Positions 1 to 19,362 of a stretch of DNA of 23,328 bases are shown here, piece by piece. The stretch is from the IMG/VR virus record IMGVR_UViG_3300047477_000034, positions 1-23,328 of that record. One strand, 5' to 3'. The DNA comes from a virus. The notes under the pieces are model-generated. The model was given only the letters and a program-made list of their open reading frames with translations, had not been told where the DNA came from and did not search any database. The number at the start of each line of letters is the position of its first letter. The stretch's first letter is position 1. The translations under genes and the position numbers were made by a program.

Positions 1-1865
1 GCTGCATTGGGTATTAATGCTTCACGAACCAACTTGGATGCTTGGGGACTTTGCTTACCCAACATCTGCATACGACCAACACGGCTCATGCCATAAGCGA
101 AGCGTGCTTGAACCTTGTTCAGAGCTATACCACTTGCATCAGCAATGTTCTGCATCTCTTTAACACGGCCAAACAATGACTCAAATGCAGATTGGATAGA
201 AAGATTCTTACCTTCCACTGTCTCAAGGTGAGTCTTGTTGTAAAGCTTCTTGTCTTCAGCAGTCAGTACACCAGCACCAAAGATTTCAAGCAGACTATCC
301 AGACCAAGCTGCTTGTACAAGTCCAGCATTGGTTGGTTCAAGTAGAACGGAGTCTTCTGTTCTTGCTCAATTGCTTTGGTCTGGTCAGCAGTCAATGCCA
401 CATCAGCATTGTTCATTTGTGTCTTGGCCACAGGCACAGTTGCATCACCAAAGTACATTGGTTCCACAATCTCAGAGTTAGCCATCTCAGCCAAGAATGT
501 TGGGTAAGCTTCATAGCCAGTACCCAATTGCTCATGATCCAAGGTGAACACATTCAAGTCTTGGGTGGCACCTTCAGGACGAATCTTGTTGTACTCGACC
601 AGACCCATTTCAATCATTGCAGTCAGCACTTCAGTAGCCACTGCTTGAGGAATACCCACTGTTGCTGATTGAGAAAAATCAGCATTGGCTTTCATGCCCC
701 AGAACTCAGTAATGTTTGCTGCCATACGTGGAATCACATCCCACATAGTCAGTTGATCACCACTGTTGAATGCAGCCAGCATCGCAGGAGACACGTCTTC
801 CTCGTTGATACCAAGCAATGCAGCAATATCACTTTCTTCACGAATCACACCAGCATTGGTTGCAGTCTGGAACCAATTCAAGGAACCAAGAACAGCAGCT
901 TCTACAAGCTCTTGGTTGTAAACGTAGTTTGCACCGTTGATGTAATCATTGATTGCTTCTTTAACAAAAGCTTGTGTAGGTTTTTCACCTAAACCAATTA
1001 AATGATTTTGAACAATAGATTCAATGAGCTTATGATTATGCTTGTACAGGTCTTTACCTTCAGCATTTTTACCAGCAGACTCAGCAATAACTATAGGCTT
1101 GTCTTTGAAATGAGCAACAAGGGCTTTTTGCACAAGCTTTAAATTTTGTTCATGCTTGGTATTACCATCAGACTCCAAAATATTTAATGCTTTACCACGG
1201 AGATAATCATGGACTGGAATACCAGTACCCAACAGAATACGCAGCGTGAGTCCATTTTTAGGAACAATGTCAATGGCTGCATTCATGGAAGCGTTCATAC
1301 GCTTGACCAACTCACCCACCATTGCAGGCACACGTTCACCATAGTAAGCAGCAACTTCAGGTGTCAATGAACGCTTGGTTGTGTCTTTACCAAGGAAGTC
1401 CACCAATGCTTCTGTTGAAGTCAGCACAGACTCAACCAGTGCAGCAGGGGATACCGAACCAAGGAAACGAGAGGCAATCTTACGTAGACTGAAAGCCTTG
1501 TCCAACGAAGTCACACCACGATCATTGCTGATCAAAGTAGGGTAGGCTTCAGCCACTGTCTTTGGTGCAGCAGGTGGAGTAACTGTAGTTGATGCAGCAA
1601 CAATTGCTTGACCAGTAACACTAGGAGCATTCGGCACAATTGTTGGAGTGATTACAGGAGCAACTTGCTCTGGTGTCTTCAGCAAAGTATCAAGTTTATC
1701 TTGTGCTTCTGCCATTAATGCTTCTGCAGCTTTATAAAAGTCAGAGTTCAACAGAGTATCTTCTGTTTTATTGAACAGAGTTTTTGCCTTATTTTGAATG
1801 AAGGCAAAACGCTTATTACTCATAGAATGAGCAACAGCACAGCCAGTAGCTTTGTTAACAGACAT
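1..1865 (-). CDS. Virion RNA polymerase, polymerase-domain protein (N4 gp50-like), 3' part beyond window
   Basis: Single-subunit T7-type RNA polymerase of the N4 virion class; in N4 it is packaged in the capsid, injected, and transcribes the early genes. The frame is open for 621 codons from ATG at 1865 to the left edge. The start has a good ribosome site (AAGGA, 7 bases upstream) and overlaps the end of the previous gene by 11 bases. Residues 1-65 form a novel mostly helical N-terminus and 66-104 a Pro/Thr/Val-rich linker. From about residue 105 (AEAYPTLIS) the sequence resembles the start of the N4 mini-vRNAP. Closest stretches are YFGDATVPVA (471-480), QPMLDLYKQLG (511-521), LEIFGAG (526-532), SRVGRMQMLGK (594-604) and KLVREALIP (611-619). 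SRVGR is the T/DxxGR signature with Ser for Thr; R598 would match the N4 catalytic-core Arg (R424 of mini-vRNAP). Motifs A, B and C must lie off the edge. The gene lacks the roughly 1000-residue N-terminal domain of N4 gp50, which is encoded separately at 5668-8976. Confidence 0.93.
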   Translation of the reverse strand, partial: MSVNKATGCAVAHSMSNKRFAFIQNKAKTLFNKTEDTLLNSDFYKAAEALMAEAQDKLDTLLKTPEQVAPVITPTIVPNAPSVTGQAIVAASTTVTPPAAPKTVAEAYPTLISNDRGVTSLDKAFSLRKIASRFLGSVSPAALVESVLTSTEALVDFLGKDTTKRSLTPEVAAYYGERVPAMVGELVKRMNASMNAAIDIVPKNGLTLRILLGTGIPVHDYLRGKALNILESDGNTKHEQNLKLVQKALVAHFKDKPIVIAESAGKNAEGKDLYKHNHKLIESIVQNHLIGLGEKPTQAFVKEAINDYINGANYVYNQELVEAAVLGSLNWFQTATNAGVIREESDIAALLGINEEDVSPAMLAAFNSGDQLTMWDVIPRMAANITEFWGMKANADFSQSATVGIPQAVATEVLTAMIEMGLVEYNKIRPEGATQDLNVFTLDHEQLGTGYEAYPTFLAEMANSEIVEPMYFGDATVPVAKTQMNNADVALTADQTKAIEQEQKTPFYLNQPMLDLYKQLGLDSLLEIFGAGVLTAEDKKLYNKTHLETVEGKNLSIQSAFESLFGRVKEMQNIADASGIALNKVQARFAYGMSRVGRMQMLGKQSPQASKLVREALIPNA

Positions 1866-2124
1866 TGAAGAATCCTTTTGTAACTAATGCCACGATAAGC
1901 TCTGTAGCAAGTTGATCGTCTTGGTGTAAGTGTAGTGTCTTAAGCTCTGCTAAACGATCACGTTCTTTACGTAAAGTTTTGATACGCAAAGAAGCTTCAC
2001 TCGTGGTGGAAGAGTGCTGAACTTTTGCTACTGGTTCTGGGACAGGAACATCTACAGGACTAAGTGCAAAAGCTGCAACACTGAATGCTGTTACTGCAAA
2101 AGAACTTGCAGCAAAACCTTGCAT
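1855..2124 (-). CDS. Small virion-type protein with five-residue Phe repeat and helical tail (89 aa)
   Basis: I do not recognise a function. The likely start is ATG at 2124, giving 89 residues. It overlaps the TGA of the upstream gene as TGATG and has GAGAGG 6 bases upstream. A TTG at 2139 in the same frame would add five residues but sits before this ribosome site. Residues 3-20 carry Phe at exactly every fifth position (F4, F9, F14, F19), each followed by small residues, which resembles the short AFQ-type repeats at the N-terminus of some small phage tail proteins. A Pro/Val-rich hinge follows (about 22-35), then a charged, probably helical segment (about 44-72, with LRKERDRLAEL). The stop lies inside the start of the polymerase gene, so the two may be translationally coupled. 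It is probably a minor structural protein; the role is unknown. Confidence 0.7.
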   Translation of the reverse strand: MQGFAASSFAVTAFSVAAFALSPVDVPVPEPVAKVQHSSTTSEASLRIKTLRKERDRLAELKTLHLHQDDQLATELIVALVTKGFFNVC

Positions 2125-2975
2125 CACTCGCCTCTCCAAAGATTAGTGCTTGAACCATCTCCAAGTATCGTCGCACCATTCATCTTTACTGTGTTGACTG
2201 GAATAGCTGTGGTGTTCAGAGCATCTAGTACGGCTGCTGCAATAGCTTCTGTATCTGGTGGAGTTCCTGCAGTCAATGTACGTGAAACACTTGCCCATAC
2301 TGCAGCACCTAATGCTGTGTAATCCACACCACCTGATGCTGCACTATTAAGCTTGGCTCCCATAGAACCTGCTGCTGCGTAGTCTGCTGATACTGCATTC
2401 CATACAGCGGCTGTTATTGTTGCTGGAGTCATCACACTGTTATCTACAGTACTAGCATTTCCATAAGCTAATCCGTAACCAACAACAGAACCAGAAACAT
2501 TAAACGCACCATTGGCTACACCCCAAGCTGTAGCACCTGCTACTGCATTACCCGTGATACTAATAGTTCCATTGGCATTACCGGAGGCTAAACCTGCAAT
2601 GACTGCGTTGCCCGATATAGTGATAACACAATTGGCAACGCCACCAGCAATAAGACCACCAATTGCATTACCAGTAATAGCAAAATTAGCACTGGCAGAA
2701 CCGGGTTTTCCTAACGCACCTATTGCACTACCATTGATGTTAAACGCAGAGCGTGTAACCATTCGCCCTGCTTTTTGTGGTGCAAGAAATGCTCGCCCTG
2801 CCATTTGTCCACTAGGCACAGCATCGTATTTCCATAACGTAGACAACGTGAGGTTGCCTCGGTTACGCATCATCCCCGGCTTGTTCCAATTGGCACGGTC
2901 ATTAAATCCTACCGTACCTGTAGTGTATTTAGCAGGAGATTTATGCAACAAAGAGATGTTGCCAAGCAGCGCCAT
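2124..2975 (-). CDS. Repetitive fibre-like virion protein (283 aa)
   Basis: Probable surface or tail-fibre-type structural protein. The ATG directly abuts the stop of the preceding gene (TAAATG), so translation is likely coupled. Residues 1-75 form an N-terminal part with many basic residues. Residues 78-177 contain five 20-residue repeats. Residues 183-245 carry the pattern AAVWxAxxxxYxxxGSMGAKLNxA and then AAVWxxVSRTLT, which recurs in phage tail-fibre and appendage proteins. The last 25 residues (KMNGATILGDG) resemble the closing segment of such proteins. No enzyme motif, signal peptide or transmembrane helix is evident; Gly, Ala, Asn and Thr dominate. Neighbouring genes are also structural. 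The fibre-like role is inferred from composition, repeat architecture and the AVW motifs, and receptor binding is not shown. Confidence 0.72.
   Translation of the reverse strand: MALLGNISLLHKSPAKYTTGTVGFNDRANWNKPGMMRNRGNLTLSTLWKYDAVPSGQMAGRAFLAPQKAGRMVTRSAFNINGSAIGALGKPGSASANFAITGNAIGGLIAGGVANCVITISGNAVIAGLASGNANGTISITGNAVAGATAWGVANGAFNVSGSVVGYGLAYGNASTVDNSVMTPATITAAVWNAVSADYAAAGSMGAKLNSAASGGVDYTALGAAVWASVSRTLTAGTPPDTEAIAAAVLDALNTTAIPVNTVKMNGATILGDGSSTNLWRGE
2445..2744 (-). repeat. Five 60-bp coding repeats (20-residue period)
   Basis: Within the 283-aa protein the core NGSAI, TGNAI, SGNAV, TGNAV, SGSVV recurs at residues 81, 101, 121, 141 and 161, an exact 20-residue period. Each unit has a short hydrophobic strand (FAI, VITI, ISI), the GNA turn, a Gly/Ala stretch and a GxA ending. 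The DNA copies have diverged more than the protein spacing, so this is an old duplication kept in register. The pattern suggests a stacked beta structure. Confidence 0.85.
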
Positions 2976-4103
2976 TTAGTTCTTCCAAACAGTTTGAAGC
3001 GTGAAATTGTATGGAGTGTTCACTGGATGTATTGCTCCAGCCAATTGCAACCAACTGAGACATGCACCATCAGGAATAATTGGCATACTTGGTAGCTGAT
3101 TGAAAAAGTCCCGTTCTCCCGGTACAGCAATTGTTGTTAGAGGTACAGGCAGACCAATCTCTTTATACAACACAATGGCGTACACGCCAGAAGTCATAGT
3201 GGCAGATTGCTGAATTGTCTGGATACTCAAAATACCATTATCACCAGCAGCCAGTGGCATACCGGGACCATACTTTCCAGCGCCAGTACCAGAGTACAGA
3301 ATCTGCCCAACAGGTGCTGTTGCATTAGCAATAGGCAATGATGGGAATGGTGGAGTCAAGCGTCCCGAGACAGACGATGGGTTGGTGTAGTTGAGTTGCA
3401 GCGTCGGGGTGCCTGCCCCCATGACCACAACTGGAGTGATGTACGCTTTGACACCTTTACCATCAGCGTAGCGTGGGTAGGCTTGTGAGCCAAGGATGGT
3501 CTGAGCCGTAGCAACAGTGACAGTATCAACTGGAATAAATCCGATGATGTCTACCAATTGAAAGAACGTGGGTGCCGATGTTGCAGCAGCGGATACCACT
3601 GAAGCATTGAGTAACTGCTTAACTGCAGGGGACACATTGCCACCATGCTTGATGAAATTGGCAGTAGCTGTTCCGGTAATAGTCTGTGCTGTGACGGTCT
3701 GTGAGTTGTTGACCGTATAAGTGCCACCGTTGTTACGACCTGTGCCTGTTCCCAATGCAGTAATGTAGGTATTGGCAGTAACGCCAGTACCAGTTAATTG
3801 CATACCAATAGTGAACCGTCCAGAACCATGTGTGGTGTCAGTAAATGTGGTGCCAGAAATACTGCCACCCAGAGCACCAGACACTGCCGTAGTCGTAGTA
3901 CTGTCGCTGACGGGCTGAAATGTAAGATTAGTGCCAGAGCCAATGAGCGCATCCCATGACAACATGCCAGCACCTTTACTCAAGTCATACCAAATACCTG
4001 CGGCTTGTGCGGTGACAGAGTGCAAGTTTTTACTAGAGGATTCAATCCATGTTTGCCCTGCTGCAAGTGCTGCGTCCAGATCGTCTTTTGAATTAATTGA
4101 CAT
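2976..4103 (-). CDS. Virion surface-type protein, paralogue of the upstream gene, with inserted module (375 aa)
   Basis: No function recognised, but it is clearly a paralogue of the 284-aa protein encoded just upstream. Shared landmarks in the same order are AGIWYDLS (35-42), HGGNVSP (153-159), RYADGKGV, PVVV, YTNPSSVSGRLTP, the LxxGDxGI segment, PGERDF and MPIIPDGACL. The two differ chiefly by an extra segment of about 80 residues (71-148) in this copy. No transmembrane or signal sequence is visible; the protein is rich in Thr, Gly and Ala, as in bead-like or beta-sandwich virion proteins. It begins 3 bases after the 284-aa gene with only a weak GGG ribosome site, so it may rely on translational coupling. 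A capsid decoration, head-fibre or tail-appendage role is plausible. I infer a structural role from the location and composition. Confidence 0.75.
   Translation of the reverse strand: MSINSKDDLDAALAAGQTWIESSSKNLHSVTAQAAGIWYDLSKGAGMLSWDALIGSGTNLTFQPVSDSTTTTAVSGALGGSISGTTFTDTTHGSGRFTIGMQLTGTGVTANTYITALGTGTGRNNGGTYTVNNSQTVTAQTITGTATANFIKHGGNVSPAVKQLLNASVVSAAATSAPTFFQLVDIIGFIPVDTVTVATAQTILGSQAYPRYADGKGVKAYITPVVVMGAGTPTLQLNYTNPSSVSGRLTPPFPSLPIANATAPVGQILYSGTGAGKYGPGMPLAAGDNGILSIQTIQQSATMTSGVYAIVLYKEIGLPVPLTTIAVPGERDFFNQLPSMPIIPDGACLSWLQLAGAIHPVNTPYNFTLQTVWKN
3660..3893 (-). other. Inserted Gly/Thr-rich module inside the 375-aa protein
   Basis: Residues about 71-148 of the 375-aa protein have no counterpart in its 284-aa paralogue, where the flanking landmarks sit about 80 residues closer together. 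The segment has the pattern GSISGTTF - IGMQLTGTGV - ITALGTGTG - GTYTVNNSQTV - ITG. This is a compact module I recognise as recurring in many unrelated phage virion proteins. It looks like a transferable beta-rich domain dropped into the loop before HGGNVSP. Boundaries are good to a few residues. Confidence 0.75.
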
Positions 4104-4106
4104 GAT

Positions 4107-4961
4107 TTATACCCAGAGAGTTTTTATGTAGCCCAAAATTTGAGCACCAGAAAGTGAGCCATTAGGTAGGCAAACGAGGTTGAGATAAGCATCATCTTTG
4201 ATGATTGGTAAGCTGCCTTGATCCATAGAGAAATCACGCTCATGTGGTGCCGTTACATCTCTAATGTAGCTCTCAGCAATCACCTTGACCAGTGCAATAG
4301 AGATAAGACCAATATCACCAACACCTTCAAATACGACACTATCTATTTGTCTAACCCCAGTATCACCTTCCTGTAATGCCATGAATGGAGCACGGGAGTT
4401 TTTAACTGCACCACCACTGGTAATAATAGTGCCATTAACTGCTTGTGCCCCCATAACATGCTGTGGGGTTTGCCTGCCAGATACACCATTCTGGTTAGTG
4501 TAGCGTACAAAGAATGTACCACCACCAATCTGACCAGCTACAACCACAGGCATCATCATTACACCAACACCATCAGGGTAGCGAGGTACTGCCACATTGT
4601 TGGTCATGAACTGCTCATCAGTTATTGACTCATCAAGAAATGGGTAAAAACCAAGATAATCCAGAATCTTAACTGACAGTGGAGCTACGTTAGCTGATTG
4701 AATTTCAAAGATACGCAGCAATTTAGTCTTAGGTGATACATTTCCACCATGCGGAACACCACCATCAGTGCTTTGACGCAACGGAGTAAATACACCGGGT
4801 GAACCAATAAAATAATTGGGAGTTGGATTACCCGGTGACATACTAAGATCAAACCATATTCCAGCCGCAGTAGTTTGCGTAGGCTGTTTTCTCCAGCCAC
4901 TGAAAAATGTAAATCCATCACGATCTGCGTCGAGTATCTCTTTCGACCCATAGACAGTCAT
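4107..4961 (-). CDS. Virion surface-type protein, shorter paralogue (284 aa)
   Basis: Not recognised by function. It is the shorter of two adjacent paralogues and probably closer to the unexpanded form. It carries AGIWFDLS (33-40), HGGNVSP (71-77), RYPDGVGVMMMPVVV, YTNQNGVSGRQTP, LQEGDTGV, PHERDF and LPIIKDDAYL, all matched in the 375-aa protein. The start ATG at 4961 follows the previous stop by 7 bases; the ribosome site (GAG, 10 bases away) is poor. No membrane segment or catalytic motif is visible. Being flanked on both sides by structural genes and having an adjacent duplicate fits an exterior virion component such as a decoration or appendage subunit. That role is inference. Confidence 0.75.
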   Translation of the reverse strand: MTVYGSKEILDADRDGFTFFSGWRKQPTQTTAAGIWFDLSMSPGNPTPNYFIGSPGVFTPLRQSTDGGVPHGGNVSPKTKLLRIFEIQSANVAPLSVKILDYLGFYPFLDESITDEQFMTNNVAVPRYPDGVGVMMMPVVVAGQIGGGTFFVRYTNQNGVSGRQTPQHVMGAQAVNGTIITSGGAVKNSRAPFMALQEGDTGVRQIDSVVFEGVGDIGLISIALVKVIAESYIRDVTAPHERDFSMDQGSLPIIKDDAYLNLVCLPNGSLSGAQILGYIKTLWV

Positions 4962-4968
4962 GAAATAA

Positions 4969-5382
4969 TTACTCGCAAGAAATTGTCACATCATTTGGAG
5001 CAAAAATAGGCTGGATGTTAAGATTAATATCCAACGTATCTGCTAGTGCTGCAATGATGCCCTGTGAAATAGGACCAGAAGCAGTGTCAACAATCACCAT
5101 AGCTTTAGCTTGTTGAGTTGCACCTGCGTCAGTGCGTTTACCAAATAGGAACTGCACAGCATTATTAAAAGAACTACCATTGTCCGTCCATGCAGTTGCT
5201 TTAGTAATCGGAATACGGGCATATCCTGTGTAAGTGAGTTCAGCAGCAATTGGTGCAGCTTCATCTGGATTCTGCAACGACACCAACGCAGCATATTGCG
5301 TAGGGTCAGCACGATAAGCAGGGTCTATACCTTGCAACTGGCTTTTGAGAATTTGATTTTCGGTAGCATTTGAGAGGGACAT
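4969..5382 (-). CDS. Small virion protein of the SxxxExxIL type (137 aa)
   Basis: It begins MSLSNATENQIL, then has a central YAALVSLQNPDEA and LTYTGYARIPI, and later a FLFGKRTDAGATQ stretch. This order (Ser-rich start with ExxIL, a YxALx...P strand, a GYARxxx strand, then a strand around residue 90) matches a common family of small phage structural proteins usually annotated as tail or head-fibre components. I know that family by architecture only. The ribosome site is good (TAGGA, 6-7 bases before ATG at 5382). The C-terminal third (DIQPIFAPND-like, hydrophobic and polar alternation) is less typical. Role in the virion is uncertain. Confidence 0.7.
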   Translation of the reverse strand: MSLSNATENQILKSQLQGIDPAYRADPTQYAALVSLQNPDEAAPIAAELTYTGYARIPITKATAWTDNGSSFNNAVQFLFGKRTDAGATQQAKAMVIVDTASGPISQGIIAALADTLDINLNIQPIFAPNDVTISCE

Positions 5383-5390
5383 GATGTTTC

Positions 5391-5666
5391 CTAAGTGGCT
5401 TCTGCGTAGATAGAACGTATAGTACCATCACTGTTACGTTCAAATGTGAAAGTCCAAGCTAACACTTGTTGACTTGGTTGTGCAGCTTGTACATGAACAA
5501 TAGGTGCTGGAACTTCTAACGTAGGCATTGTAATCTGAGGCACTGCTTGTGGTTTGCTTAATGCTTCCATAAGTTTTTGCATCAGATCAGAAGTTTGCTT
5601 TTGTTGCATTACTTCAGCAAGGCTAGGGCCATTATCCAGATCATCATCAAGATTATCTTTTTTCAT
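5391..5666 (-). CDS. Small protein with helical N-half and C-terminal WTFTFERNSDG strand motif (91 aa)
   Basis: First of the six genes that separate the two vRNAP pieces; its ATG follows the stop of the 1102-aa gene by one base. The N-terminus is acidic (KKDNLDDDLDNGPS) and is followed by a likely helix (LAEVMQQKQTSDLMQKLMEAL, about residues 16-37), a Pro/Val-rich linker, and a C-terminal LAWTFTFERNSDGTIRSIYA element. The last motif (W-F-F-ER-DG-I-I-A) recurs at the C-terminus of many small phage proteins next to structural genes; I cannot assign a function. DLDN-P near its start echoes DLDNAP at residue 1031 of the preceding 1102-aa protein. It may be a small adaptor or accessory virion protein. 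Confidence 0.65.
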   Translation of the reverse strand: MKKDNLDDDLDNGPSLAEVMQQKQTSDLMQKLMEALSKPQAVPQITMPTLEVPAPIVHVQAAQPSQQVLAWTFTFERNSDGTIRSIYAEAT

Positions 5667-5667
5667 T

Positions 5668-8600
5668 TCACTTGCCCTTCAAACATTTCATGAAAGCATC
5701 GTAAATTTCAATTTCTTTTTGAAGTTTGATGATCTGCTTTTGTTGTGCTTCTGTCCTTGGTTCCTGTACTACATCTGGTGCAGCAGGAATTACGGCAACT
5801 TGTGCTGCAGGCACTACATTAATCTTCACACCATCATTCAGAGCTTGAACCAACTGAAGAATACGTTCTGGAGCATTATCCAAATCACTCTCATCAGATG
5901 ATTCTTGCACACGGACAGCCTCACCATACTCAGCAGGAGTGGCAGTCAGTTCAGTAGTATCTACCGACTGAACGGTAGTTCCAGTTGCTTTGGTAGGGGT
6001 TGTTTCGGCAACTGTTGCTGTGCTTCCTTCTTGGGCCGCTTGGTTCGATTCTGCTTGGATGGCTTCAGGGGTTTGAGTGACACTTGTTGTCTCCGGGGTT
6101 GGTGGACTTTTACGAAGTTCTAACTCAGCATTAATCTGAGCCAGATTGTTTGGACGCTCTTCAGTAGTTAGACGTTCCTTCTTGCCTTTAACTACAGGTG
6201 CAGCAGGCGTAGTCGTGGCAGGAGATAGTGTCAGCTTCTGTTGTTGTGGGTAGCCACGTTTACCATTGGTGAATTCAGCAGCTACAACAGCAGAAGTACC
6301 CTGCAAGCCATCCTGCAATTTCACAGCAGTACGTGCTTGGCCCAACAAACTAGGGTAGGCAATAGCCAACCCGTTGTACACACCAACGAGAAACTCAGCT
6401 TCAGCAGCGAGCTTCTTGACAAAATTTAAAGACCCTGTGCTCTTAGGTTCAACACCATATAGAGTCTTGGATGCTGCCATCTTGTACCCAGCTTTGGGTG
6501 ATAGCACCTGTACCTGTTGACGGGGAGCACCCTCACCTGCATTAAAGTGATTATTGACACCTGCTACCTTATTGTTCTGCCCATCAATGAATAGACCAAA
6601 CATCTCCAAGGCAGTACCTGCACCAGCAATGTCACCTTTGTTCACCAAGTCACGTATTCTAGTTACGTGTTGCATAGCAGAGCGTTGGCCATCAACATCG
6701 CGCTCAACACTATCACTGGTCTTGATTTGGGAACCAACAATATCACGTACACGAGAGACACCAGCAGGACTTGCAATACCTGAAGCTGTCAGTTCAGCAT
6801 CATAGACTTGAGCAGATTCAATCAATGCCTGTGCAGCTAATAATGCTTCTCTTTGAGCAAGGGTAAGAGTAATTCTCCCATCCTTCGCCATCTTAAGAGA
6901 AGTACCTATAGCTTTAGAACTAGCTTGAATAGGCTTACCTGTAGTAAGAGCTGTTTGAGCATCCAGAATAACAATCTGCGCAGTTTCAGGTGTTTGCACA
7001 GGATTATTCAGAATAGCCTGTGCTTCTGCACTCTGTAGACGCTTCTGAGTTGCAGCGTAATGAGCCATTACTTCTGGTGAACTTGCCACAGCACCAAAAG
7101 TACTATTGATAATATTTACAAAGTCAGTGATCTCAGGATCACCCAATAAATCAGTATCAACACCATTAAGCTTTGATAGAGCAGCTTCTGTTGAATCAAG
7201 CAGAGACATTAACGCTCTGGTCTTTTCAAAAGAAATATCATCTACTGTTGCATCTTTCAGATGTTCAGCCAAGGCACGAATAGCACCAATACGAGTTTTC
7301 TGTTCACCAATAACAGGCAAAGCAGCTTGTAACTCAGGGGCTGCTAAATCTTGTTCATTGAGTTGCAGACCTTTGAGAAATGCAGGTATATCTGCTGCTA
7401 GGGTAGCTTTAGTTGCAGCAACTTCAGGAGTATCAGTAGCAGCAGGAGCAAGTTTACTTTGAAAATCTGCAAGTAATCCCGGTGCATTCTGAATGAACTC
7501 ATCAGACTGTTCAACTACACGGTTGATGGAAGCGGGGGAATCAGCTTCATTCTTTGCAAGATAAGCATCAGCACGATTTATAACAAGATCAAGAGCAGAA
7601 CCAGCAGTACTCTTAACAGCTGAACCAAGAACACTAGGTGCAGCCATAACACCAGCAGTACCCAGACCATACAGAGCACCACGACCACCTTGTTCACCCA
7701 CATTCTCAGACAGAGACTTGTTGCTATCTGCGAATGTTTGAATGCCAAGATTGGAAGCAAAGGCACCAGTAATACCCTGCGAACTTTCTTCAATAGTCTC
7801 TTTGCCCATGTTCATAGCAGCAACTTTGTTAGCACCCATCTTCAATGGATTACCTTCAAAGCCTTTGACTAGTGAACCAGCAGCCATAGCAAGTGGTGCA
7901 GTAATGGCAGCAGCAAGTAGACCAGCTTTGTTAGCTACAGAGGTGCGTGCTTCTTCTGGTGATACACCAGCAGCAATCATCTTGGCATAGTCAGGTGAAC
8001 CAGCAAGCAATTGCTCATGGGTCATATTGCCGATTTCAGCCACAGTACCTTGATATGCACCACCAGCTTCCATTGCACCAATGGCAGCAGGAATAGCCAT
8101 ACCATCTTTGGCCATGATTCCTTTAGCAATGACAGCAGCTTCATCAGCAGATTTACCCGCAACAATGGCTGCATCTTTAGCAGCAGCAGCTTTCAAAAGT
8201 TTGGCTGCATTAGCAGCACGACTGACAGGAGCCAAGGCCAAAAATGAGCCAGAACCTTCAGCAATTCCATCAGAAAGAGTGATTGGATCAGCAGCAGCAT
8301 TGGCAATACCATCTACAAAACCACGACCAAAACGAGCCAAGTCAGCAGTGATTCCCTTGCCAGCAGCTTTGTCCTTCTCATACTGGAGGTCATTGTCACG
8401 CTTGTCCATCTGATCAGCAGCAGCCAATACTTTACGGCGTTGTTGGACTGCAAGTGATTGAGTACCGTGAACGAAGTTACCAAAGTCTTCCAACTTGGTA
8501 GCAGCAGCTTGGCCAGCATCTGCGTTGACCATACCAAGACCCATTGCACCAATTCCACCAATGGAATTGACAGCACCAAGACCAACACCACTGATCAGAT

Positions 8601-8976
8601 CAGCAGCAGTTTGATTCCAATCACGTTGCTGTGTTTGGTCAGCAAAGATCGAATTGTTAGCCGTAGCACGGTTAGCAATCATCTGAGCAGCAGTGCCATA
8701 CCCATACTTACGTTCCAGATCAGACGTACCCATAGTACGAATGTCTGTTTCCATTGGATCAGCACTTGCTGCACCTGCACCAGTCTCCACACCCACCAAA
8801 GGAGCATACATCTGTTGTGCAGTAGGAACTGCACCACCCATGTTTGCAATCTTGTTAGCACTAACTTGTGCTACTTGAGCCTGCTTAATAACACTCAATG
8901 TAGGAGGCTGTGCGATGTTTCTTTGTTGGTTCTGGGCGACAGCATTGGCCAATATTTCATTGAGAACGTCATTCAC
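5668..8976 (-). CDS. Stand-alone N-terminal domain of N4-type virion RNA polymerase / ejection protein (1102 aa)
   Basis: This protein resembles the first ~950 residues of N4 gp50 but has no polymerase part. Landmarks matching N4 from memory are ISGVGLGAVNSIGGIGAMG (128-146), ADAGQAAATKLEDFGNFVHGT (152-172), FGRGFVDGIANAA (216-228), SDGIAEGSGS (235-244), AIGAMEAGGAYQGT (298-311), KETIEESSQGITG (392-404), GGRGALYGLGTAGV (430-443), AKDGRITL (697-704) and DIVGSQIKTSDS (745-756) with QRSAMQHVTRIRD. In N4 this domain precedes the polymerase and is part of the injected protein. Residues 915-1070 form a Thr/Pro/Glu-rich linker like the N4 one, but the chain then ends in a charged helix (1073-1100) and a stop. 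Glycine/alanine-rich stretches at 128-150 and 352-372 could be membrane-active. The ATG at 8976 has an in-frame TGA directly before it; the ribosome site (AGGA, 11 bases away) is somewhat distant. Confidence 0.92.
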   Translation of the reverse strand: MNDVLNEILANAVAQNQQRNIAQPPTLSVIKQAQVAQVSANKIANMGGAVPTAQQMYAPLVGVETGAGAASADPMETDIRTMGTSDLERKYGYGTAAQMIANRATANNSIFADQTQQRDWNQTAADLISGVGLGAVNSIGGIGAMGLGMVNADAGQAAATKLEDFGNFVHGTQSLAVQQRRKVLAAADQMDKRDNDLQYEKDKAAGKGITADLARFGRGFVDGIANAAADPITLSDGIAEGSGSFLALAPVSRAANAAKLLKAAAAKDAAIVAGKSADEAAVIAKGIMAKDGMAIPAAIGAMEAGGAYQGTVAEIGNMTHEQLLAGSPDYAKMIAAGVSPEEARTSVANKAGLLAAAITAPLAMAAGSLVKGFEGNPLKMGANKVAAMNMGKETIEESSQGITGAFASNLGIQTFADSNKSLSENVGEQGGRGALYGLGTAGVMAAPSVLGSAVKSTAGSALDLVINRADAYLAKNEADSPASINRVVEQSDEFIQNAPGLLADFQSKLAPAATDTPEVAATKATLAADIPAFLKGLQLNEQDLAAPELQAALPVIGEQKTRIGAIRALAEHLKDATVDDISFEKTRALMSLLDSTEAALSKLNGVDTDLLGDPEITDFVNIINSTFGAVASSPEVMAHYAATQKRLQSAEAQAILNNPVQTPETAQIVILDAQTALTTGKPIQASSKAIGTSLKMAKDGRITLTLAQREALLAAQALIESAQVYDAELTASGIASPAGVSRVRDIVGSQIKTSDSVERDVDGQRSAMQHVTRIRDLVNKGDIAGAGTALEMFGLFIDGQNNKVAGVNNHFNAGEGAPRQQVQVLSPKAGYKMAASKTLYGVEPKSTGSLNFVKKLAAEAEFLVGVYNGLAIAYPSLLGQARTAVKLQDGLQGTSAVVAAEFTNGKRGYPQQQKLTLSPATTTPAAPVVKGKKERLTTEERPNNLAQINAELELRKSPPTPETTSVTQTPEAIQAESNQAAQEGSTATVAETTPTKATGTTVQSVDTTELTATPAEYGEAVRVQESSDESDLDNAPERILQLVQALNDGVKINVVPAAQVAVIPAAPDVVQEPRTEAQQKQIIKLQKEIEIYDAFMKCLKGK

Positions 8977-9023: not shown

Positions 9024-11081
9024 TTATGACTTTAGAGCATCTCTATATGCTTTTTCAGCTTCTGCCCGAGACTTGAAAGTCTTACCTTTCAATTTTGTAT
9101 AAACAGGGTTTTCAATAGGTTGATAGTAACTAACCGAAGGATTACGAATAGTTTTATCAATGTCTAATGACCAAGTTTTACCACCGTCCGTACTGCGTAA
9201 AGGAGCTTTAACCTTATCAGCCGCAGCAATCAATGAAGCAGCGATAGGAGCAGAAACATTTGTCGGAGCATCCTTTGTTGATTTGGCAGCAGGTGGCGTT
9301 GTTTCACTCTCCGTCTTGGGACGGAAGCTATCAATTTGCAATTGAATCTGTTGAGCAGTACTCGATGCTTGATTCAAAGCAACATCAGCTTTGGTCACAT
9401 CATCTTGAGTGACACCATATACACCCTTGGCAAGTTCAATCTTCTTGGCATCACGGTATGCCTTAAGAGCCTCAACTTGTTTCTGAGTCTCAGCCAGAGC
9501 AGCAGTACCTTGATCCAAGGAACGACCAGCTTGAATTGCATCAGTTGTTGTTGAGCGTTTGTTGTACTTATCAATGTTCTCTTTGAGTAACTTATCATTG
9601 AAATCTGGATTGAAACCAAAAGTATCAGTGCCAAAACCAAACCTGAATGTTGAATCACCAGATAAGGAAGACTTAAGCAGTTCACCTGCCAAACGATAAT
9701 CACCAGTTGTCTTGGTAGCAGAAGCTACTTGTGCCAACATCTCCTGAATACGATTCATGGGAACAGTTGCAAGACTTCCCTTTTTCAATTCATTGGCAAC
9801 ATCAGCAAGGGAGCCATTACCCGGTGTAGCAGTAGCAGCCTGCCAACGCTCTACTTCTGGAGTATTAGCACTAAGCTTTGCCATATTATTCAGAGTAGCA
9901 GAACTCGCAGCAGAATTACTCAGTTGTTGGATAGTTGGTACACGGCCAATCACCTGATCAATGTACTGACCCACAGTTGGATCATTTGGTCTTTCAGGAT
10001 TACGACGATCACGATTGATAGTGCCATCTGCATTCACAGCAGCAGGGCCACTGTAATAAACAGCAGCTACTTGTTCTGGTGTTTTGTACTTCTTGGCCAG
10101 ATCAGCAATGTGAGCAAACCCTGCAGCTTTGTTGTCTGCAGGATTATTCCAATCTGCAGTTGCAGGAATGACACCATTCTTTTTCAGTCCTTCAAACGTA
10201 GCTTGCTGAATCTGCATCGGCCCAGTGACACTCTGAGAATTCACCTTCGTGGTGTCAGCTTTACCAGAGCTAGATTCTTGTCCATAGATTGCATTACCAA
10301 GAGCAACAGGATCAAAAGACAGACCAGTAGAAGCAGTACCAGCAACACCCGGAACAGTACCAACAGAAGTGCCCGGAACTTGTACTGAACCAAAGGAACC
10401 AATGCCACTGGCCAATGGAGGTGCAATTGGAGCAGCAGTCAGTTCTGGGAAGCGGCTACTCAATGCTTGAGTATATAAGGCAGTAACTTCCTTGGGACCA
10501 CCACTGACAGACTTGAGCAAGTCTCGTGCTTGGTTCACAGTACTCAATGAGCCATCAGTCAAACGCTTGTTGACATCAACTTGTGCAGTGTCCAAAAGTT
10601 CCCGGGTTTTCTCATTACGCACCCACACCCCATCAGCACGTTCACGATCAGTCTTGGCATTAGGACGGGTAACTTTCTCAAGATGGGTTTGAGCATCCCT
10701 ATCTTGATACAAGTCGTAACTCGCTTGATCATTTTGAGTACCTTGATTAGCAAGCAACAGAGGATTCAAATCTTTACGATATGCAGCCTGTTGTTGGTTT
10801 GTTTGGTTCTCAATCAAACTAGCAGGGCGACCCATAATCGTAGCCAATGCTTCAGGAGAAGCATTGGCTGTATTGAAACGACCAGACTGAATATCTGCTT
10901 GCAACTTCTGTGCATCAGAGTACTGAGCTAACTGTTGTAGAGTCTGTTGATCCCCAAACTGTGTCAATGCACCGGACAACCCAGTTGTACTTTTAGCAAG
11001 TAGATCAGCAGCACTGTTAATACCTGTCTGAACCCCTCGAAAGTCAGGACCAGAAACATCACGCCAAGTTAATGCAGCCAT
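9024..11081 (-). CDS. Ejection protein with lytic transglycosylase domain (N4 gp51 position, 685 aa)
   Basis: Large internal virion protein expected to travel with the DNA and cut peptidoglycan during entry. The SLT-type transglycosylase domain spans about residues 255-375. IYGQES holds the probable catalytic Glu (E269), GPMQIQ (287-292) is the conserved Gly-x-Met-Gln motif, and AAVYYSGPAAV (339-349) is the AYNxGPGAV-type motif. The N-terminus (TWRDVSGPDFRGVQTG) resembles the start of other podophage ejection proteins. Residues 30-220 and 400-640 are mainly helical and Gln/Ala/Lys-rich. The start at 11081 has an excellent ribosome site (AAGGA, 6 bases). It sits between the gp52-like and vRNAP N-terminal-domain genes, the place of N4 gene 51. 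The C-terminus (VYTKLKGKTFKSRAEAEKAYRDAL) looks like a small alpha/beta fold. Confidence 0.85.
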   Translation of the reverse strand: MAALTWRDVSGPDFRGVQTGINSAADLLAKSTTGLSGALTQFGDQQTLQQLAQYSDAQKLQADIQSGRFNTANASPEALATIMGRPASLIENQTNQQQAAYRKDLNPLLLANQGTQNDQASYDLYQDRDAQTHLEKVTRPNAKTDRERADGVWVRNEKTRELLDTAQVDVNKRLTDGSLSTVNQARDLLKSVSGGPKEVTALYTQALSSRFPELTAAPIAPPLASGIGSFGSVQVPGTSVGTVPGVAGTASTGLSFDPVALGNAIYGQESSSGKADTTKVNSQSVTGPMQIQQATFEGLKKNGVIPATADWNNPADNKAAGFAHIADLAKKYKTPEQVAAVYYSGPAAVNADGTINRDRRNPERPNDPTVGQYIDQVIGRVPTIQQLSNSAASSATLNNMAKLSANTPEVERWQAATATPGNGSLADVANELKKGSLATVPMNRIQEMLAQVASATKTTGDYRLAGELLKSSLSGDSTFRFGFGTDTFGFNPDFNDKLLKENIDKYNKRSTTTDAIQAGRSLDQGTAALAETQKQVEALKAYRDAKKIELAKGVYGVTQDDVTKADVALNQASSTAQQIQLQIDSFRPKTESETTPPAAKSTKDAPTNVSAPIAASLIAAADKVKAPLRSTDGGKTWSLDIDKTIRNPSVSYYQPIENPVYTKLKGKTFKSRAEAEKAYRDALKS

Positions 11082-11094
11082 TATGATTCCTTAA

Positions 11095-11604
11095 TTAAGC
11101 GGAAGCTGGTAATTTGCGACGTGCATATTCAGCATCCATCTCTTCTTTACTGGTTCCAACACCAGAACCAACACGTCGAATACGTTGTGCCAAAGTGTCA
11201 TTGTATGCGTGTGTTTGGTTCGCAAGGTTTGCAGTAGCAAACTTCTGTGCAGACTCAAACTGTTTGTTAGCCAAACCTAAAGACTTTGTACCCATGTACA
11301 AGGAACCAAGGGAATTCAATCCTTGTAGGCCCAGAGCGAGCGTAGGCATGTTGAAACCAAAGCCTGAACCTGTAGTGTTCTGCCCTATAGTGTTCTGCCC
11401 TATAGTGTTCCCACTACCTAACCGCCCTTGATAGTCTTTATACAGGTCTGGTGGTAAAGTGTTCCCACTACCTAACCGCCCTAGATAGTATTTAAACATG
11501 TCTGGTGGTATAGCGAAAGCAGGCTGTTGGCCAAAGCCAGCAAGAAGACCGTTCAACCCAACATCTTGGTTGGGTTGTTGATTGGTCAAATCATCGGGAA
11601 GCAT
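11095..11604 (-). CDS. Small internal virion protein with tandem repeats (N4 gp52 position, 169 aa)
   Basis: Probable small ejection or inner-core protein, comparable in place and size to gp14-type proteins of podophages. The C-terminal half has GFNMPTLALGLQGLNSLGSLYMG (about 88-110), a hydrophobic helix, then LANKQFESAQKFATANLANQT and a basic tail. This pattern (helix, then FxxAxxFAxxNLANQ) recurs in small internal proteins of many podophages. The N-terminal half holds two 18-residue repeats (PPDxxKxYxGRLGSGNT) followed by two IGQNT units, probably a recently expanded flexible spacer. The ribosome site is strong (AAGGA, 8 bases before ATG at 11604). Assignment to the gp52 slot is by gene order only. 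Confidence 0.75.
   Translation of the reverse strand: MLPDDLTNQQPNQDVGLNGLLAGFGQQPAFAIPPDMFKYYLGRLGSGNTLPPDLYKDYQGRLGSGNTIGQNTIGQNTTGSGFGFNMPTLALGLQGLNSLGSLYMGTKSLGLANKQFESAQKFATANLANQTHAYNDTLAQRIRRVGSGVGTSKEEMDAEYARRKLPASA
11373..11402 (-). repeat. Two perfect 15-bp tandem repeats (IGQNT units)
   Basis: The 15-base unit tagtgttctgcccta occurs twice without a mismatch (11373-11387, 11388-11402). A third partial copy begins at 11403 and runs into the 54-bp repeats. Five codons per unit keeps the frame. Perfect identity implies recent slippage or duplication. Confidence 0.95.
11405..11512 (-). repeat. Two 54-bp tandem repeats (18 residues each)
   Basis: Units 11405-11458 and 11459-11512 differ at five positions by eye. 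They encode PPDLYKDYQGRLGSGNT and PPDMFKYYLGRLGSGNT plus one flanking residue each. The first 23 bases are identical. The unit is a multiple of three, so copy number can change without breaking the gene. Confidence 0.95.
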
Positions 11605-11618
11605 GATAGGTATCCTTC

Positions 11619-14603
11619 TTAATCAAGATAAGGGAGTGCCAGTTGTGGGGCAGGGAAGTTTTCCACAAATTTAAGGGAAAGTTCAGCAATCTCAGTACCC
11701 GTCATTGTAGTTCTGTCTAGGAACTGTTCAGGGTTTTCTGTTGCATAACGAATCGCATCAGTGATTGTTGTGGGGTTAATGCCAGAGTCACCCAACAATT
11801 CTTGGGTAAGACGCTGAATGTCTTTCAGGGATTTTTCACTTTCAAGCATCAATGCTTGTGTTTCAGCGCTGATTTCTGCTACTTTACCTTGGAGGTAGCT
11901 ACCATACTCGTTTATGCCACTCAGGGATAGCTTGATCAAGTTATCCGCTTTGGTCATCTGTGTCCAAGAATCAGCAAGGCTAAAGGCTTTATCCCCAGAA
12001 CTCATCAAGTTGATGGTGATCATTGAAGCAATTAGACCAACAATCCTGCCTACTTCTTCACCCAGAGCAGCCTTTGAAACTCTGACAATCAATGCAGACA
12101 CAATGGCTGCAGCTACAGCATTGGCAATAGCACCAGCAATAGCTGCAGTGCCCACAAAACCTAACGTAGCCCCTACTGTTGCATTGGTTCCAAGCACTCC
12201 TGCTGCTTCAGGACCAATATAACCAGTGTAAACGGCGATAACAATAATGGCGACAACAACAATAATCTGGAAAAAGCCAGTGCTATACCAAGGAATTGTT
12301 TGTTTATTGTAGTAGTTAACCACGATAAATGCACATTCCAAACTAAGCTGTGTTCTACGAATTAAAGTTAATTCAGTAAATACACCCTCATGCAGTGGAA
12401 TGATAAAACTTGAATTCTCTTCTGTAGAAGCAATAGCAGTTGTTCCCAACGTGGTTGTGGTGACTCCTTGATACACGTTATTGACGTGAACCAAATCAAA
12501 AAATTCATACTCTACCCAAGTATCTGCAGCAACTTGTTTACCAAAAGCAATGACTGTAGTTGTTGCGGGTATAAAAGATAACTCAACATCGTTGGTGTAA
12601 GAAGGAACAGACAGAGTTATTGTGCTCTTTGCATATACCCAGCAATGTCCAATCTTACCTAAAGATTTTGCATGATACCCGGAACCAATAACTTGACCAC
12701 CCCCTTTAGCAGTAATGGTTATATTAAAAAGCCAGTTCTGTACTGCCCCAGAAGAATTTATAGTAGTTGTGTATTCCTGAGCTACTGGAGGAATAGGTCT
12801 AGTAGGTATATCTACGCCTGATTCATCATTAGTAGATACTTGTGCTGCAGACACAAATGTTGCCCAAGCATCTGCATAAGCAGTCGGGCTTTTATATGTA
12901 CCTACTGCAATGGCGGTAGTATCAGCAATGTTCTTGAAGAATTCATACAAATACTTTTGACCGTCTTGCTGCTTGGTGTTTAAGGACACTCCAAAAACAA
13001 CCCAAGCATGATCAATGTCACCCAAGCCGGGATTATCAGCAAGAGATTCCAAGAGGCTATCGTATTTTTTCTTACTGCCAAAACACTTCTTAGCGGCTTT
13101 CCTGTTCCATCCATATTGTGTTGGAAAATTAGCAAGGTCTACCATTACGTTATCCCTACGCAATGGAATAACTGGAAAGAACTTTTGTGTGCTGGTGGGG
13201 GTATTGAATAACAATGAGTCTCCCTCACTGCTACTACCCTTTTGATAGATTTTTAACAAGTAAGGCGACCACTTTTCTTGGGTGATTTCAGTAGTTACTT
13301 GTTTGTATTTCCAATACGTTTCAACAACTGGAGTAACGGTGGTAACTGTTGTAGTTATCGTTATAGGGGTACTACGTGTTATTGTGAATCCAACTGTAGC
13401 AGTAGGGTACGTGAAATAAGCATACACTGCACCTGCCATATATGAAAGCGTTCTGCTTGCAATATCTGTTCCTGTGACAAGGGAGCCGGGAATAACTGCT
13501 GTAGTTGTAAATAACCCGTTATATCCACCTGCTCCGGGCGAGTGACTAGCTACAAGTGTTTGTCCTGCTGAAATGGGGATTGCTAGAGTTGTGCTTGATC
13601 CTCCAAGAGTTATAAACACACCCGCACTATTTATACTTTTATTAGTTTCAGAACCAAAGGAAACTGCAACAGTTTGTGGATCAACTACAGAATTGGTAGT
13701 TACTTCTGTTGTGTACTGAATGTTGTAAAAAGATTCTTCCTCTTGCACCAAAGTAGTTTCTTTACCTTTAATAGAGGCAGTAGCGTCTATTAATGTAATC
13801 TTAGTATAGGTGCCTGTAACATGATCAAAAGACAAAGCAACAGGTTCAGTAGTTTCAACATGAGTTGTTGGGTTCCCGTTTGAATATGAAGTATCTGTTG
13901 TTATCGTTTTATCCAAACTACCTGTCACAACATCAATAGTAGGAGTGCCTGTGAAATCTACTTTAGCTGGTGGTGTTTCTGGGGCTGCAAGAGTTATCCA
14001 ACCGGTGTCAGTAATTTCAGGAACAGAAAGAAGACGCTGTTCATGATAAAGGTACACAAACGGCATATTGTTATTGAGATTGTATGCAGGGGTAAATACT
14101 GCTGTAGCTCCCCCTGTATATGTAATCAAAACGTTGCCCGTCAATGTGCCAAGAAAACCCGATGTCTTCTCAAGCGTAGCAGCAAAAGTTAAATACCTGT
14201 TTGCAGGTGTGTTATTAATAATCCATTCAAGAGCAATCAGATGTAAATCCAAAGCAGTGATGGAAAAGGTTATAGCTCTTTGATCGTGAGTAGCTAACGC
14301 TGGAACCAAGTAACTAAAACCTGCAGGCGACAAACTTCTTGAACTATAAATTAAACCTCCCAAATTACCCACTTGAGTGTTATATCCAGAAGTCTCAGCC
14401 CACTTAAAGAAACGAGTGTAAGACGTTGCTGGCCCTGCCAAATGAGCATCAATAATACCGTTGCCTAATCCTCCTTTTGAAGCCCCTGAAAAAAGAGTAC
14501 TAAGGATGGTGTTCTTCATGAAATTAGCACGATTAACAACATCCCCTGCTAAGTTATAAGCAGAAGAACCAACTGAGATTACCTCTTCATCTTCTAAGCA
14601 CAT
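11619..14603 (-). CDS. Large virion protein with hydrophobic core segment (N4 gp53 position, 994 aa)
   Basis: No enzyme motif recognised. Residues about 1-480 are Thr/Val/Ser-rich and beta-like, with long alternating strands. Residues 480-560 hold a distinctive charged block (LRRDNVMVDLAN, YGWNRKAAKKCFGSKKKYDSLLESLADNPGLGDIDHAWVVFG) that I have seen in other large tail or internal proteins. At about 775-865 there is a long hydrophobic stretch: FFQIIVVVAIIVIAVYTG, then Gly/Ala-rich TAAIAGAIANAVAAAIVSAL, then VGLIASMI, enough for two to four membrane helices. The C-terminal 110 residues are helical and polar. A strong ribosome site (GAGG, 7-8 bases) precedes ATG at 14603. It lies in the N4 gene 53 slot, between the gp54-like and gp52-like genes. 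The hydrophobic core hints that it could enter the host membrane during DNA delivery; that is inference. It could instead be a tail-hub or fibre-base protein. Confidence 0.75.
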   Translation of the reverse strand: MCLEDEEVISVGSSAYNLAGDVVNRANFMKNTILSTLFSGASKGGLGNGIIDAHLAGPATSYTRFFKWAETSGYNTQVGNLGGLIYSSRSLSPAGFSYLVPALATHDQRAITFSITALDLHLIALEWIINNTPANRYLTFAATLEKTSGFLGTLTGNVLITYTGGATAVFTPAYNLNNNMPFVYLYHEQRLLSVPEITDTGWITLAAPETPPAKVDFTGTPTIDVVTGSLDKTITTDTSYSNGNPTTHVETTEPVALSFDHVTGTYTKITLIDATASIKGKETTLVQEEESFYNIQYTTEVTTNSVVDPQTVAVSFGSETNKSINSAGVFITLGGSSTTLAIPISAGQTLVASHSPGAGGYNGLFTTTAVIPGSLVTGTDIASRTLSYMAGAVYAYFTYPTATVGFTITRSTPITITTTVTTVTPVVETYWKYKQVTTEITQEKWSPYLLKIYQKGSSSEGDSLLFNTPTSTQKFFPVIPLRRDNVMVDLANFPTQYGWNRKAAKKCFGSKKKYDSLLESLADNPGLGDIDHAWVVFGVSLNTKQQDGQKYLYEFFKNIADTTAIAVGTYKSPTAYADAWATFVSAAQVSTNDESGVDIPTRPIPPVAQEYTTTINSSGAVQNWLFNITITAKGGGQVIGSGYHAKSLGKIGHCWVYAKSTITLSVPSYTNDVELSFIPATTTVIAFGKQVAADTWVEYEFFDLVHVNNVYQGVTTTTLGTTAIASTEENSSFIIPLHEGVFTELTLIRRTQLSLECAFIVVNYYNKQTIPWYSTGFFQIIVVVAIIVIAVYTGYIGPEAAGVLGTNATVGATLGFVGTAAIAGAIANAVAAAIVSALIVRVSKAALGEEVGRIVGLIASMITINLMSSGDKAFSLADSWTQMTKADNLIKLSLSGINEYGSYLQGKVAEISAETQALMLESEKSLKDIQRLTQELLGDSGINPTTITDAIRYATENPEQFLDRTTMTGTEIAELSLKFVENFPAPQLALPYLD

Positions 14604-14625
14604 GAAGCATCCTCTGCTTAATTTT

Positions 14626-15717: not shown

Positions 15718-15730
15718 GGCAACCCCTTAA

Positions 15731-15758
15731 ATAAAAATGGCCCAATTGAAGGGCCATT
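15731..15758 (-). terminator. Intrinsic terminator between gp55-like and gp54-like genes
   Basis: On the minus strand, AATGGCCC, a 7-base loop, GGGCCATT, then TTTATTT. The 8-bp stem is perfect (15736-15743 with 15751-15758) and the U-rich run follows it directly in the direction of transcription. On the plus strand no T-run follows, so it works for minus-strand transcripts. It lies 19 bases after the gp55-like stop codon. Confidence 0.82.
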
Positions 15759-15777
15759 CAAAATTAGCTGTGATAGT

Positions 15778-16413: not shown

Positions 16414-16428
16414 TGTGTTTACCTATTT

Positions 16429-16445
16429 ATTTGAACCAAGGAAAG
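16429..16445 (-). repeat. 17-bp exact repeat, copy A (intergenic)
   Basis: atttgaaccaaggaaag on the plus strand, overlapping the outer arm of the post-capsid hairpin. An identical copy lies in the last codons of the portal gene at 19372-19388. This copy is non-coding. Confidence 0.85.
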
Positions 16446-16470
16446 AAGGGGAGTATTCCCCTTCTTTCCT
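16439..16470 (-). promoter_or_regulatory. Strong RNA hairpin just after the capsid gene
   Basis: A perfect 14-bp inverted repeat (16439-16452 with 16457-16470) with a 4-base loop lies 13 bases after the capsid stop codon. On the minus-strand transcript it reads AGGAAAGAAGGGGA, loop, and its complement. It is followed by TGGTTCAAATAAATAG, which is not a clear U-run. It may be a weak terminator, a processing site, or a 3' stabiliser of the capsid message. Confidence 0.8.
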
Positions 16471-16483
16471 ATTATCTACCAGA

Positions 16484-17806: not shown

Positions 17807-17818
17807 TTTGTTTTATCC

Positions 17819-18970: not shown

Positions 18971-18975
18971 GTTGA

Positions 18976-19338: not shown

Positions 19339-19362
19339 GCTGAGTGGTCTTTCTATTAAGAG

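What the first reader, a model, noticed from the sequence alone, without database searches (positions are those of the whole stretch)
1..8976. Virion RNA polymerase split into two genes, separated by six other genes
The 1102-aa protein resembles the N-terminal domain of N4 gp50, including DIVGSQIKTSDS and QRSAMQH near residue 750. It ends without a polymerase. The polymerase domain, with SRVGRMQMLGK, begins as its own gene 3.8 kb later. In N4 and the relatives I know, these are one chain of about 3500 residues. This implies either a non-covalent two-part injected polymerase or a separate ejection protein freed from the enzyme. Whether the split is derived or ancestral is open.
Basis: partly seen in the sequence, partly recalled or inferred. 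Interest (0 to 1): 0.93.

Follow-up and report, generated by a model that had tools for sequence, protein, structure and literature searches.

The report
Virion RNA polymerase split by insertion
In one uncultured N4-like phage, the giant RNA polymerase that such phages inject with their DNA is encoded as two separate genes, because a 4.3-kb block of capsid-type genes sits exactly in the flexible joint between its injection part and its polymerase part; this was seen in no other phage surveyed and would let the two roles be tested apart.

Summary
Window 8976-5668 (-) encodes the N-terminal domain (NTD) of an N4 gp50-type virion RNA polymerase. Window 1865-3 (-) encodes the start of its polymerase domain, as a separate gene with its own ribosome-binding site; the contig ends inside it. 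The split is derived. The closest relatives (L003, 90% identical over the polymerase part; L004; L092) have one 3,450-3,700-aa chain, as do about 70 distinct vRNAPs in the survey. A 4,297-bp insert interrupts the chain cleanly between two neighbouring codons, inside the region matching N4's ~100-aa disordered NTD-polymerase linker. It carries six genes. Four form a module that in unrelated phages lies beside portal and major capsid genes; it is absent from 20 schitovirus records searched. Linker length varies 69-996 aa in relatives, and some linkers carry extra domains, so this joint accepts insertions. Published N4 work assigns injection and membrane contact to the NTD, transcription to the middle domain, and encapsidation to the C-terminal domain. 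Most likely the phage makes an injection protein and a polymerase as separate virion proteins. Whether they dock through their new tails is open. It is one metagenomic contig, without the catalytic core or C-terminal domain.

The parts
5668..8976 (-). Gene P1 (1102 aa, GTG start): vRNAP N-terminal (injection/membrane) domain as a separate gene. Residues ~53-903 are predicted as a folded all-helical domain, ~911-1013 as disordered linker.
   Evidence: phrog_2206 profile 27-923, E 1e-99; N4 gp50 residues 16-1000, E 1e-100; AlphaFold2 model; Ka/Ks 0.33 to L003
5668..5961 (-). New C-terminal tail of P1 (residues 1006-1102), with no relative found; two low-confidence helices (1029-1047, 1076-1101)
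   Evidence: junction alignment to L003; no relative; model
1665..5961 (-). Inserted block, 4297 bp, placed between codons equivalent to L003 899 and 900 (near N4 residue 964-970), with no loss of flanking codons
5391..5666 (-). Insert gene 1, 91 aa, no family
4969..5382 (-). Insert gene 2, 137 aa, head-associated (Pfam Gp80 'podophage GP4 fiber I'; phrog_240 head protein)
   Evidence: E 1.9e-8, E 1e-4
4107..4961 (-). Insert gene 3, 284 aa, paralogue of gene 4; conserved head-region module
   Evidence: 77 IMG/VR relatives; paralogy E 4e-25
2976..4103 (-). Insert gene 4, 375 aa, head-region module
   Evidence: phrog_21413 E 1e-9; module synteny
2124..2975 (-). Insert gene 5, 283 aa, repetitive, follows gene 4 in most relatives of the module
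1855..2139 (-). Insert gene 6, 94 aa, no relative; its 3' end overlaps the start of P2 by 11 bases
3..1865 (-). Gene P2 (at least 621 aa, open at the contig end): start of the vRNAP polymerase domain as a separate gene, with AAGGA 7 nt before its ATG
   Evidence: fold match to N4 vRNAP 9pnq, E 1e-24; Ka/Ks 0.18 to L003
1665..1865 (-). New N-terminal extension of P2 (residues 1-67), no relative; low-confidence helices 17-30 and 43-62
9024..21597 (-). Host-phage structural operon collinear with N4 gp59 (portal) to gp51, which makes the record a schitovirus
   Evidence: compared with N4; synteny and 55-98% aa identity to L004 where L004 overlaps

Best explanation
This is a derived fission of the single-chain virion RNA polymerase of an N4-like phage (Schitoviridae). 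An operon fragment of head-associated structural genes from an unrelated phage type entered the DNA that codes for the disordered linker between NTD and polymerase [shown by comparison]. The first half gained a stop codon and a 97-aa tail; the second half gained a ribosome-binding site, a start codon and a 67-aa head [shown]. Both halves are now made as separate late proteins from the same structural operon [inferred]. The NTD protein works as a free-standing ejection protein that contacts the inner membrane and helps DNA entry. The polymerase protein still carries the C-terminal domain needed for encapsidation and does early transcription after ejection [both inferred from published N4 domain functions]. 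The split is tolerated because the linker was already a flexible joint, and in N4 the polymerase domain is active without the NTD.
For: Abutting matches of the two proteins to one family profile. Intact single chains in the nearest relatives, L003 and L004 and L092. Clean junction between adjacent codons. 70 distinct fused vRNAPs in IMG/VR and GTDB loci; the only other non-fused cases are explained. Single-chain CDSs of about 3,020-3,640 aa in 14 named schitoviruses. Module conserved beside portal/MCP genes in other phages and absent from 20 schitovirus records (positive control). Own Shine-Dalgarno site for P2. Purifying selection on both halves relative to L003. Literature: N4 residues 907-1006 are a low-complexity linker and the isolated NTD enters nanodiscs (PMC12633501); the 998-2103 fragment is transcriptionally active (PMC4496689); NTD for injection, CTD for encapsidation (PMC8472413, PMC9569702; original data listed as unpublished in PMC4496689). 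DarB-like giant proteins and an ORF beside a DNA-ejection-protein gene share part of this NTD, so it occurs apart from the polymerase.
Against: One contig only. The catalytic core and C-terminal domain of P2 lie beyond the contig end. No virion proteomics. If the CTD is the sole packaging signal, it is unclear how the free NTD protein gets into the capsid. Ka/Ks includes time before the split.
Confidence: 0.72

Rival explanations
1. The two halves dock: the new C-terminal tail of P1 and the new N-terminal head of P2 carry helices that pair, so a non-covalent two-subunit vRNAP is packaged and ejected as one complex.
For: Both new segments are predicted to contain helices (P1 1029-1047 and 1076-1101; P2 17-30 and 43-62). 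It would also explain how the NTD protein is packaged if the CTD carries the signal. Precedent: N4's other polymerase, RNAPII, is a two-chain enzyme (PMC4193335).
Against: Helix confidence is low (mean pLDDT about 40-63), no relative of either segment exists to test co-variation, and no multimer prediction was possible.
Confidence: 0.3
2. The split vRNAP is a relic or a non-viable variant: the phage is defective, or an intact gp50 elsewhere supplies the function.
For: Only 23.3 kb of an expected ~70-75 kb genome is seen; insertion in an essential gene is normally harmful.
Against: Both halves are open and under purifying selection relative to L003. P2 has a good ribosome-binding site. Insert genes match the host phage in GC3 (0.33 against 0.33). 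The near-complete 73-kb relative L092 has only one gp50.
Confidence: 0.1
3. Assembly chimera: the head module belongs to another phage and was joined to the vRNAP by the assembler.
For: One contig; the module is otherwise known only outside schitoviruses; coverage and reads cannot be examined here.
Against: Two independent false joins would have to fall on adjacent codons of one gene. The longest exact repeat shared by the two junction neighbourhoods is 12 nt, too short for usual assembly k-mers (own knowledge). Both flanks are closest to the same relative, L003: P1 first half ~80-88%, P2 ~83-97% outside its new N-terminus. The genes are tightly packed with overlapping ends.
Confidence: 0.06
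4. The chain is rejoined after transcription or translation (intron, intein or trans-splicing).
For: Removing the insert would restore the L003-like sequence at the junction exactly.
Against: No group I or II intron or other relevant Rfam match. No terminal repeats or target-site duplication seen. P2 has its own ribosome-binding site. The insert length is not a multiple of three, so read-through gives no fusion. By inspection, no intein-like ends and six ordinary genes inside.
Confidence: 0.03

Closest known systems
Escherichia phage N4 virion RNA polymerase gp50 (and Schitoviridae vRNAPs in general)
   Same: Sequence, order and neighbours of NTD and polymerase domain; the break lies in the known NTD-polymerase linker
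   Different: One chain of ~3,000-4,000 aa in all examined; here two genes with six genes between
RNAP2 of Achromobacter phages JWAlpha/JWDelta (PMC4193335)
   Same: A schitovirus polymerase gene reported as divided in two by an inserted coding sequence
   Different: The middle RNAPII subunit, not the virion polymerase; one small gene inserted; functionality there is unclear
Polyvalent proteins (PMC5512222), including DarB-like injected proteins
   Same: Modular giant injected proteins to which the N4 vRNAP belongs; DarB-like giants share part of the vRNAP NTD
   Different: Described as fusions of many domains; here the chain is broken instead
T7 ejection protein gp16
   Same: Works like the proposed role of P1: a large ejection protein without polymerase that helps DNA cross the inner membrane (own knowledge; N4 vRNAP is called its analogue in PMC12633501)
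   Different: No homology tested here; an analogy of role only

Membership tests
Schitoviridae (N4-like phages) | Late operon collinear with N4 gp59-gp51 | tested here: met
   portal, gp58, gp57, MCP, gp55, gp54, gp53, gp52 and gp51 positions present in order
Schitoviridae (N4-like phages) | Single-chain giant virion RNA polymerase of ~3,500 aa | tested here: not met
   NTD and polymerase domain are separate genes; domain sequences are homologous, so the phage is filed here by descent and by the operon, with this hallmark modified
Schitoviridae (N4-like phages) | RNAPII subunits and SSB genes | not testable with these tools
   outside the 23.3-kb contig
N4-type vRNAP | NTD homologous to N4 gp50 residues 1-906 | tested here: met
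   E 1e-100 to N4 gp50 chains
N4-type vRNAP | T7-like polymerase domain (N4 998-2103) | tested here: met
   first ~450 aa of the domain present: sequence E 5e-57, fold E 1e-24 to N4 vRNAP structures
N4-type vRNAP | Catalytic motifs and C-terminal domain with HExxH | not testable with these tools
   contig ends before them
N4-type vRNAP | Packaged in the virion and ejected | not testable with these tools
   needs virion proteomics
Group I/II intron or intein insertion | Ribozyme structure or splicing-domain ends | tested here: not met
   no Rfam match; intein ends judged by inspection only
Transposon insertion | Terminal inverted repeats and target-site duplication | tested here: not met
   none seen at the ends by repeat search; junction codons read

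The most novel reading that the evidence does not exclude
A natural two-subunit injected RNA polymerase: the separate NTD protein and the polymerase-CTD protein are both packaged, dock through tails that arose with the insertion, and are ejected as a complex, turning a giant single-chain ejection enzyme into a multi-protein one.
Probability: 0.27. Interest if true: 0.85.

Novelty: new variant of a known kind. Interest (0 to 1): 0.62.

Why it matters
The single giant chain is regarded as a hallmark of Schitoviridae, and how it is packaged, unfolded, ejected and coupled to DNA entry is open (PMC12633501). A phage that makes the injection domain and the polymerase separately would show that covalent linkage is not needed for packaging, ejection or early transcription, and would let those steps be assigned to separate proteins. 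It also marks the linker as a site where phages insert cargo.

Tried and rejected
Intron or intein: rejected. Transposon ends: none. Assembly join through repeats: only 12 nt shared between junctions. Second split case in a Sulfurovum MAG (L173): an N-run scaffold gap lies in the linker, so rejected. Shigella phage pSb-1 (L094/L192): broken into three overlapping frames with no genes between, read as sequencing frameshifts. L174: the 859 aa before the polymerase match no NTD profile, so its NTD is diverged or absent; not counted as split. P1 tail as a duplicate of insert gene 1: no similarity. Relatives of P1 tail and P2 head: none. Fold search of P1 in PDB: no match. Homologues of insert genes in PDB by sequence: none credible. 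Candidate stand-alone NTD in the L046 record: runs off its contig.

Full report
What is there. The window is a whole IMG/VR virus record of 23,328 bases, probably a third of a genome. All the identified structural genes lie on the minus strand. From the right end they follow the N4 late operon: portal, gp58, gp57, major capsid, gp55, gp54, gp53, gp52 and gp51 equivalents (N4 order). Where gp50 should follow, there is instead a 1102-aa gene (P1, 8976-5668), six genes, and then a gene that starts at 1865 and runs off the contig (P2, at least 621 aa).

P1 and P2 are two parts of one protein. P1 matches the virion RNA polymerase profile at positions 27-923, and P2 the same profile at 928-1342. Against solved chains, P1 29-1011 aligns to N4 gp50 16-1000 (E 1e-100), and P2 311-620 to N4 1138-1443 (E about 5e-57). 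A predicted structure of P2 matches the N4 polymerase domain (E 1e-24). P1 is predicted as a folded helical domain (about 53-903) followed by a disordered stretch.

Derived, not ancestral. The closest relatives carry a single chain: L003 (at least 3,475 aa; 90% identical to P2), L004 (3,496 aa) and L092 (3,684 aa, one copy in a 73-kb record). A survey with the polymerase core (80 viral and 5 genome loci) and with the NTD (59 loci) gave 70 distinct sequences with both domains on one chain and 10 uninformative at contig ends. The other exceptions are not split by genes: pSb-1 is broken into overlapping frames, L173 has a run of N in its linker, and L174 has no recognisable NTD. Fourteen named schitoviruses from distant genera have one CDS of about 3,020-3,640 aa. 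A last scan with the closest relatives found no second case.

How it split. Aligned to L003, homology on the left ends at P1 codon 1005 (window 5964-5962 = L003 codon 899) and resumes at P2 codon 68 (window 1664-1662 = L003 codon 900). So 4,297 bases were inserted between adjacent codons without loss, within a few bases of alignment uncertainty. In N4 terms the site is near residue 964-970, inside the 907-1006 low-complexity linker that could not be seen by cryo-EM (PMC12633501). The insert length is not a multiple of three, so read-through cannot restore the chain. P2 has AAGGA seven bases before its ATG, as good as other genes of the operon, and its start overlaps the end of the preceding gene. 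No intron family, terminal repeats or usable assembly repeat was found. Both flanks are closest to L003, apart from a divergent stretch at P1 about 470-880 that looks like ordinary mosaicism.

What was inserted. Genes 2-5 of the insert (137, 284, 375 and 283 aa) form a block whose relatives lie in the same order in most of 77 other viral loci; none of those loci carries a vRNAP match near the block. In the examples checked they follow the portal or major capsid gene. Gene 2 matches Pfam Gp80, a podophage GP4 fibre protein. A head-surface fibre or decoration role is the best guess. The block is absent from L003 and L004 (fragments), from L092 and from 17 further schitovirus records, while the same search finds it in known carriers. 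GC3 equals that of the flanks and synonymous sites to the nearest donors are saturated, so this is not a fresh transfer from any sequenced donor.

Why it could be tolerated. The linker varies from 69 to 996 aa among relatives. Some linkers hold matches to known domains, all below Pfam cut-offs: an ADP-ribosyltransferase of polyvalent proteins (L095), a DprA-like domain (L135) and acetyltransferases (L162, L165). An ART fused to a vRNAP is already reported (PMC5512222). Part of the NTD also occurs in DarB-like giant proteins and in an ORF near a DNA-ejection-protein gene. The NTD is thus a movable unit and the linker a natural joint.

How it probably works (inferred). In N4 the polymerase fragment 998-2103 transcribes like the full enzyme (PMC4496689). 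The isolated NTD enters membrane discs (PMC12633501). The NTD is credited with injection and the C-terminal domain with encapsidation (PMC8472413, PMC9569702; original data listed as unpublished in PMC4496689). Separate P1 and P2 could therefore each do their part. The unsolved step is how P1 is packaged. It may have its own affinity for the portal or ejection proteins, or it may bind P2 through the new tails, which are predicted to contain weak helices. Nothing here decides between these.

Limits. One contig; no reads; no catalytic core or C-terminal domain of P2; the rest of the genome is unknown; Ka/Ks values (0.18 for P2, 0.33 for P1) include time before the split. In the literature searched I found no report of a split vRNAP. 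The nearest is a split RNAP2 in JWAlpha/JWDelta (PMC4193335).

Noticed in passing
L095:8858-9757, L135:7616-9673, L162:9035-9739, L165:8354-9688, L195:12605-15667: The NTD-polymerase linker of single-chain vRNAPs is a cargo site: 69-996 aa long, with weak matches to ART-PolyVal, DprA-like and GNAT domains in some. All are below Pfam cut-offs.
   Followed up: partly
L228-L233, for example L228:9254-17227: DarB-like giant prophage proteins (2,658-3,290 aa) share the first part of the vRNAP NTD (phrog_2206 positions 90-432, E 3e-28), suggesting a common injected-protein module.
   Followed up: partly
L245:3-2435 (-): An 811-aa ORF open at the contig end, in a phage that carries the head module, has a weak vRNAP-NTD match and lies near a 'DNA ejection protein' gene.
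   Followed up: partly
window 7570-6330 (P1 residues ~470-880): This part of P1 is only 35-50% identical to L003, although both sides are more similar; L003 shares this part with L004 instead. Recombination inside the NTD.
   Followed up: partly
window 16484-17806: The major capsid protein is 440 aa, against 356 positions in the PHROG profile and about 400 aa in N4; it appears to carry an insertion.
   Followed up: no
window 9024-11081: The gp51-equivalent ejection protein carries a lytic transglycosylase domain (Pfam SLT, E 8e-8). N4 ejection proteins are said to lack peptidoglycan hydrolase activity (PMC12633501).
   Followed up: no
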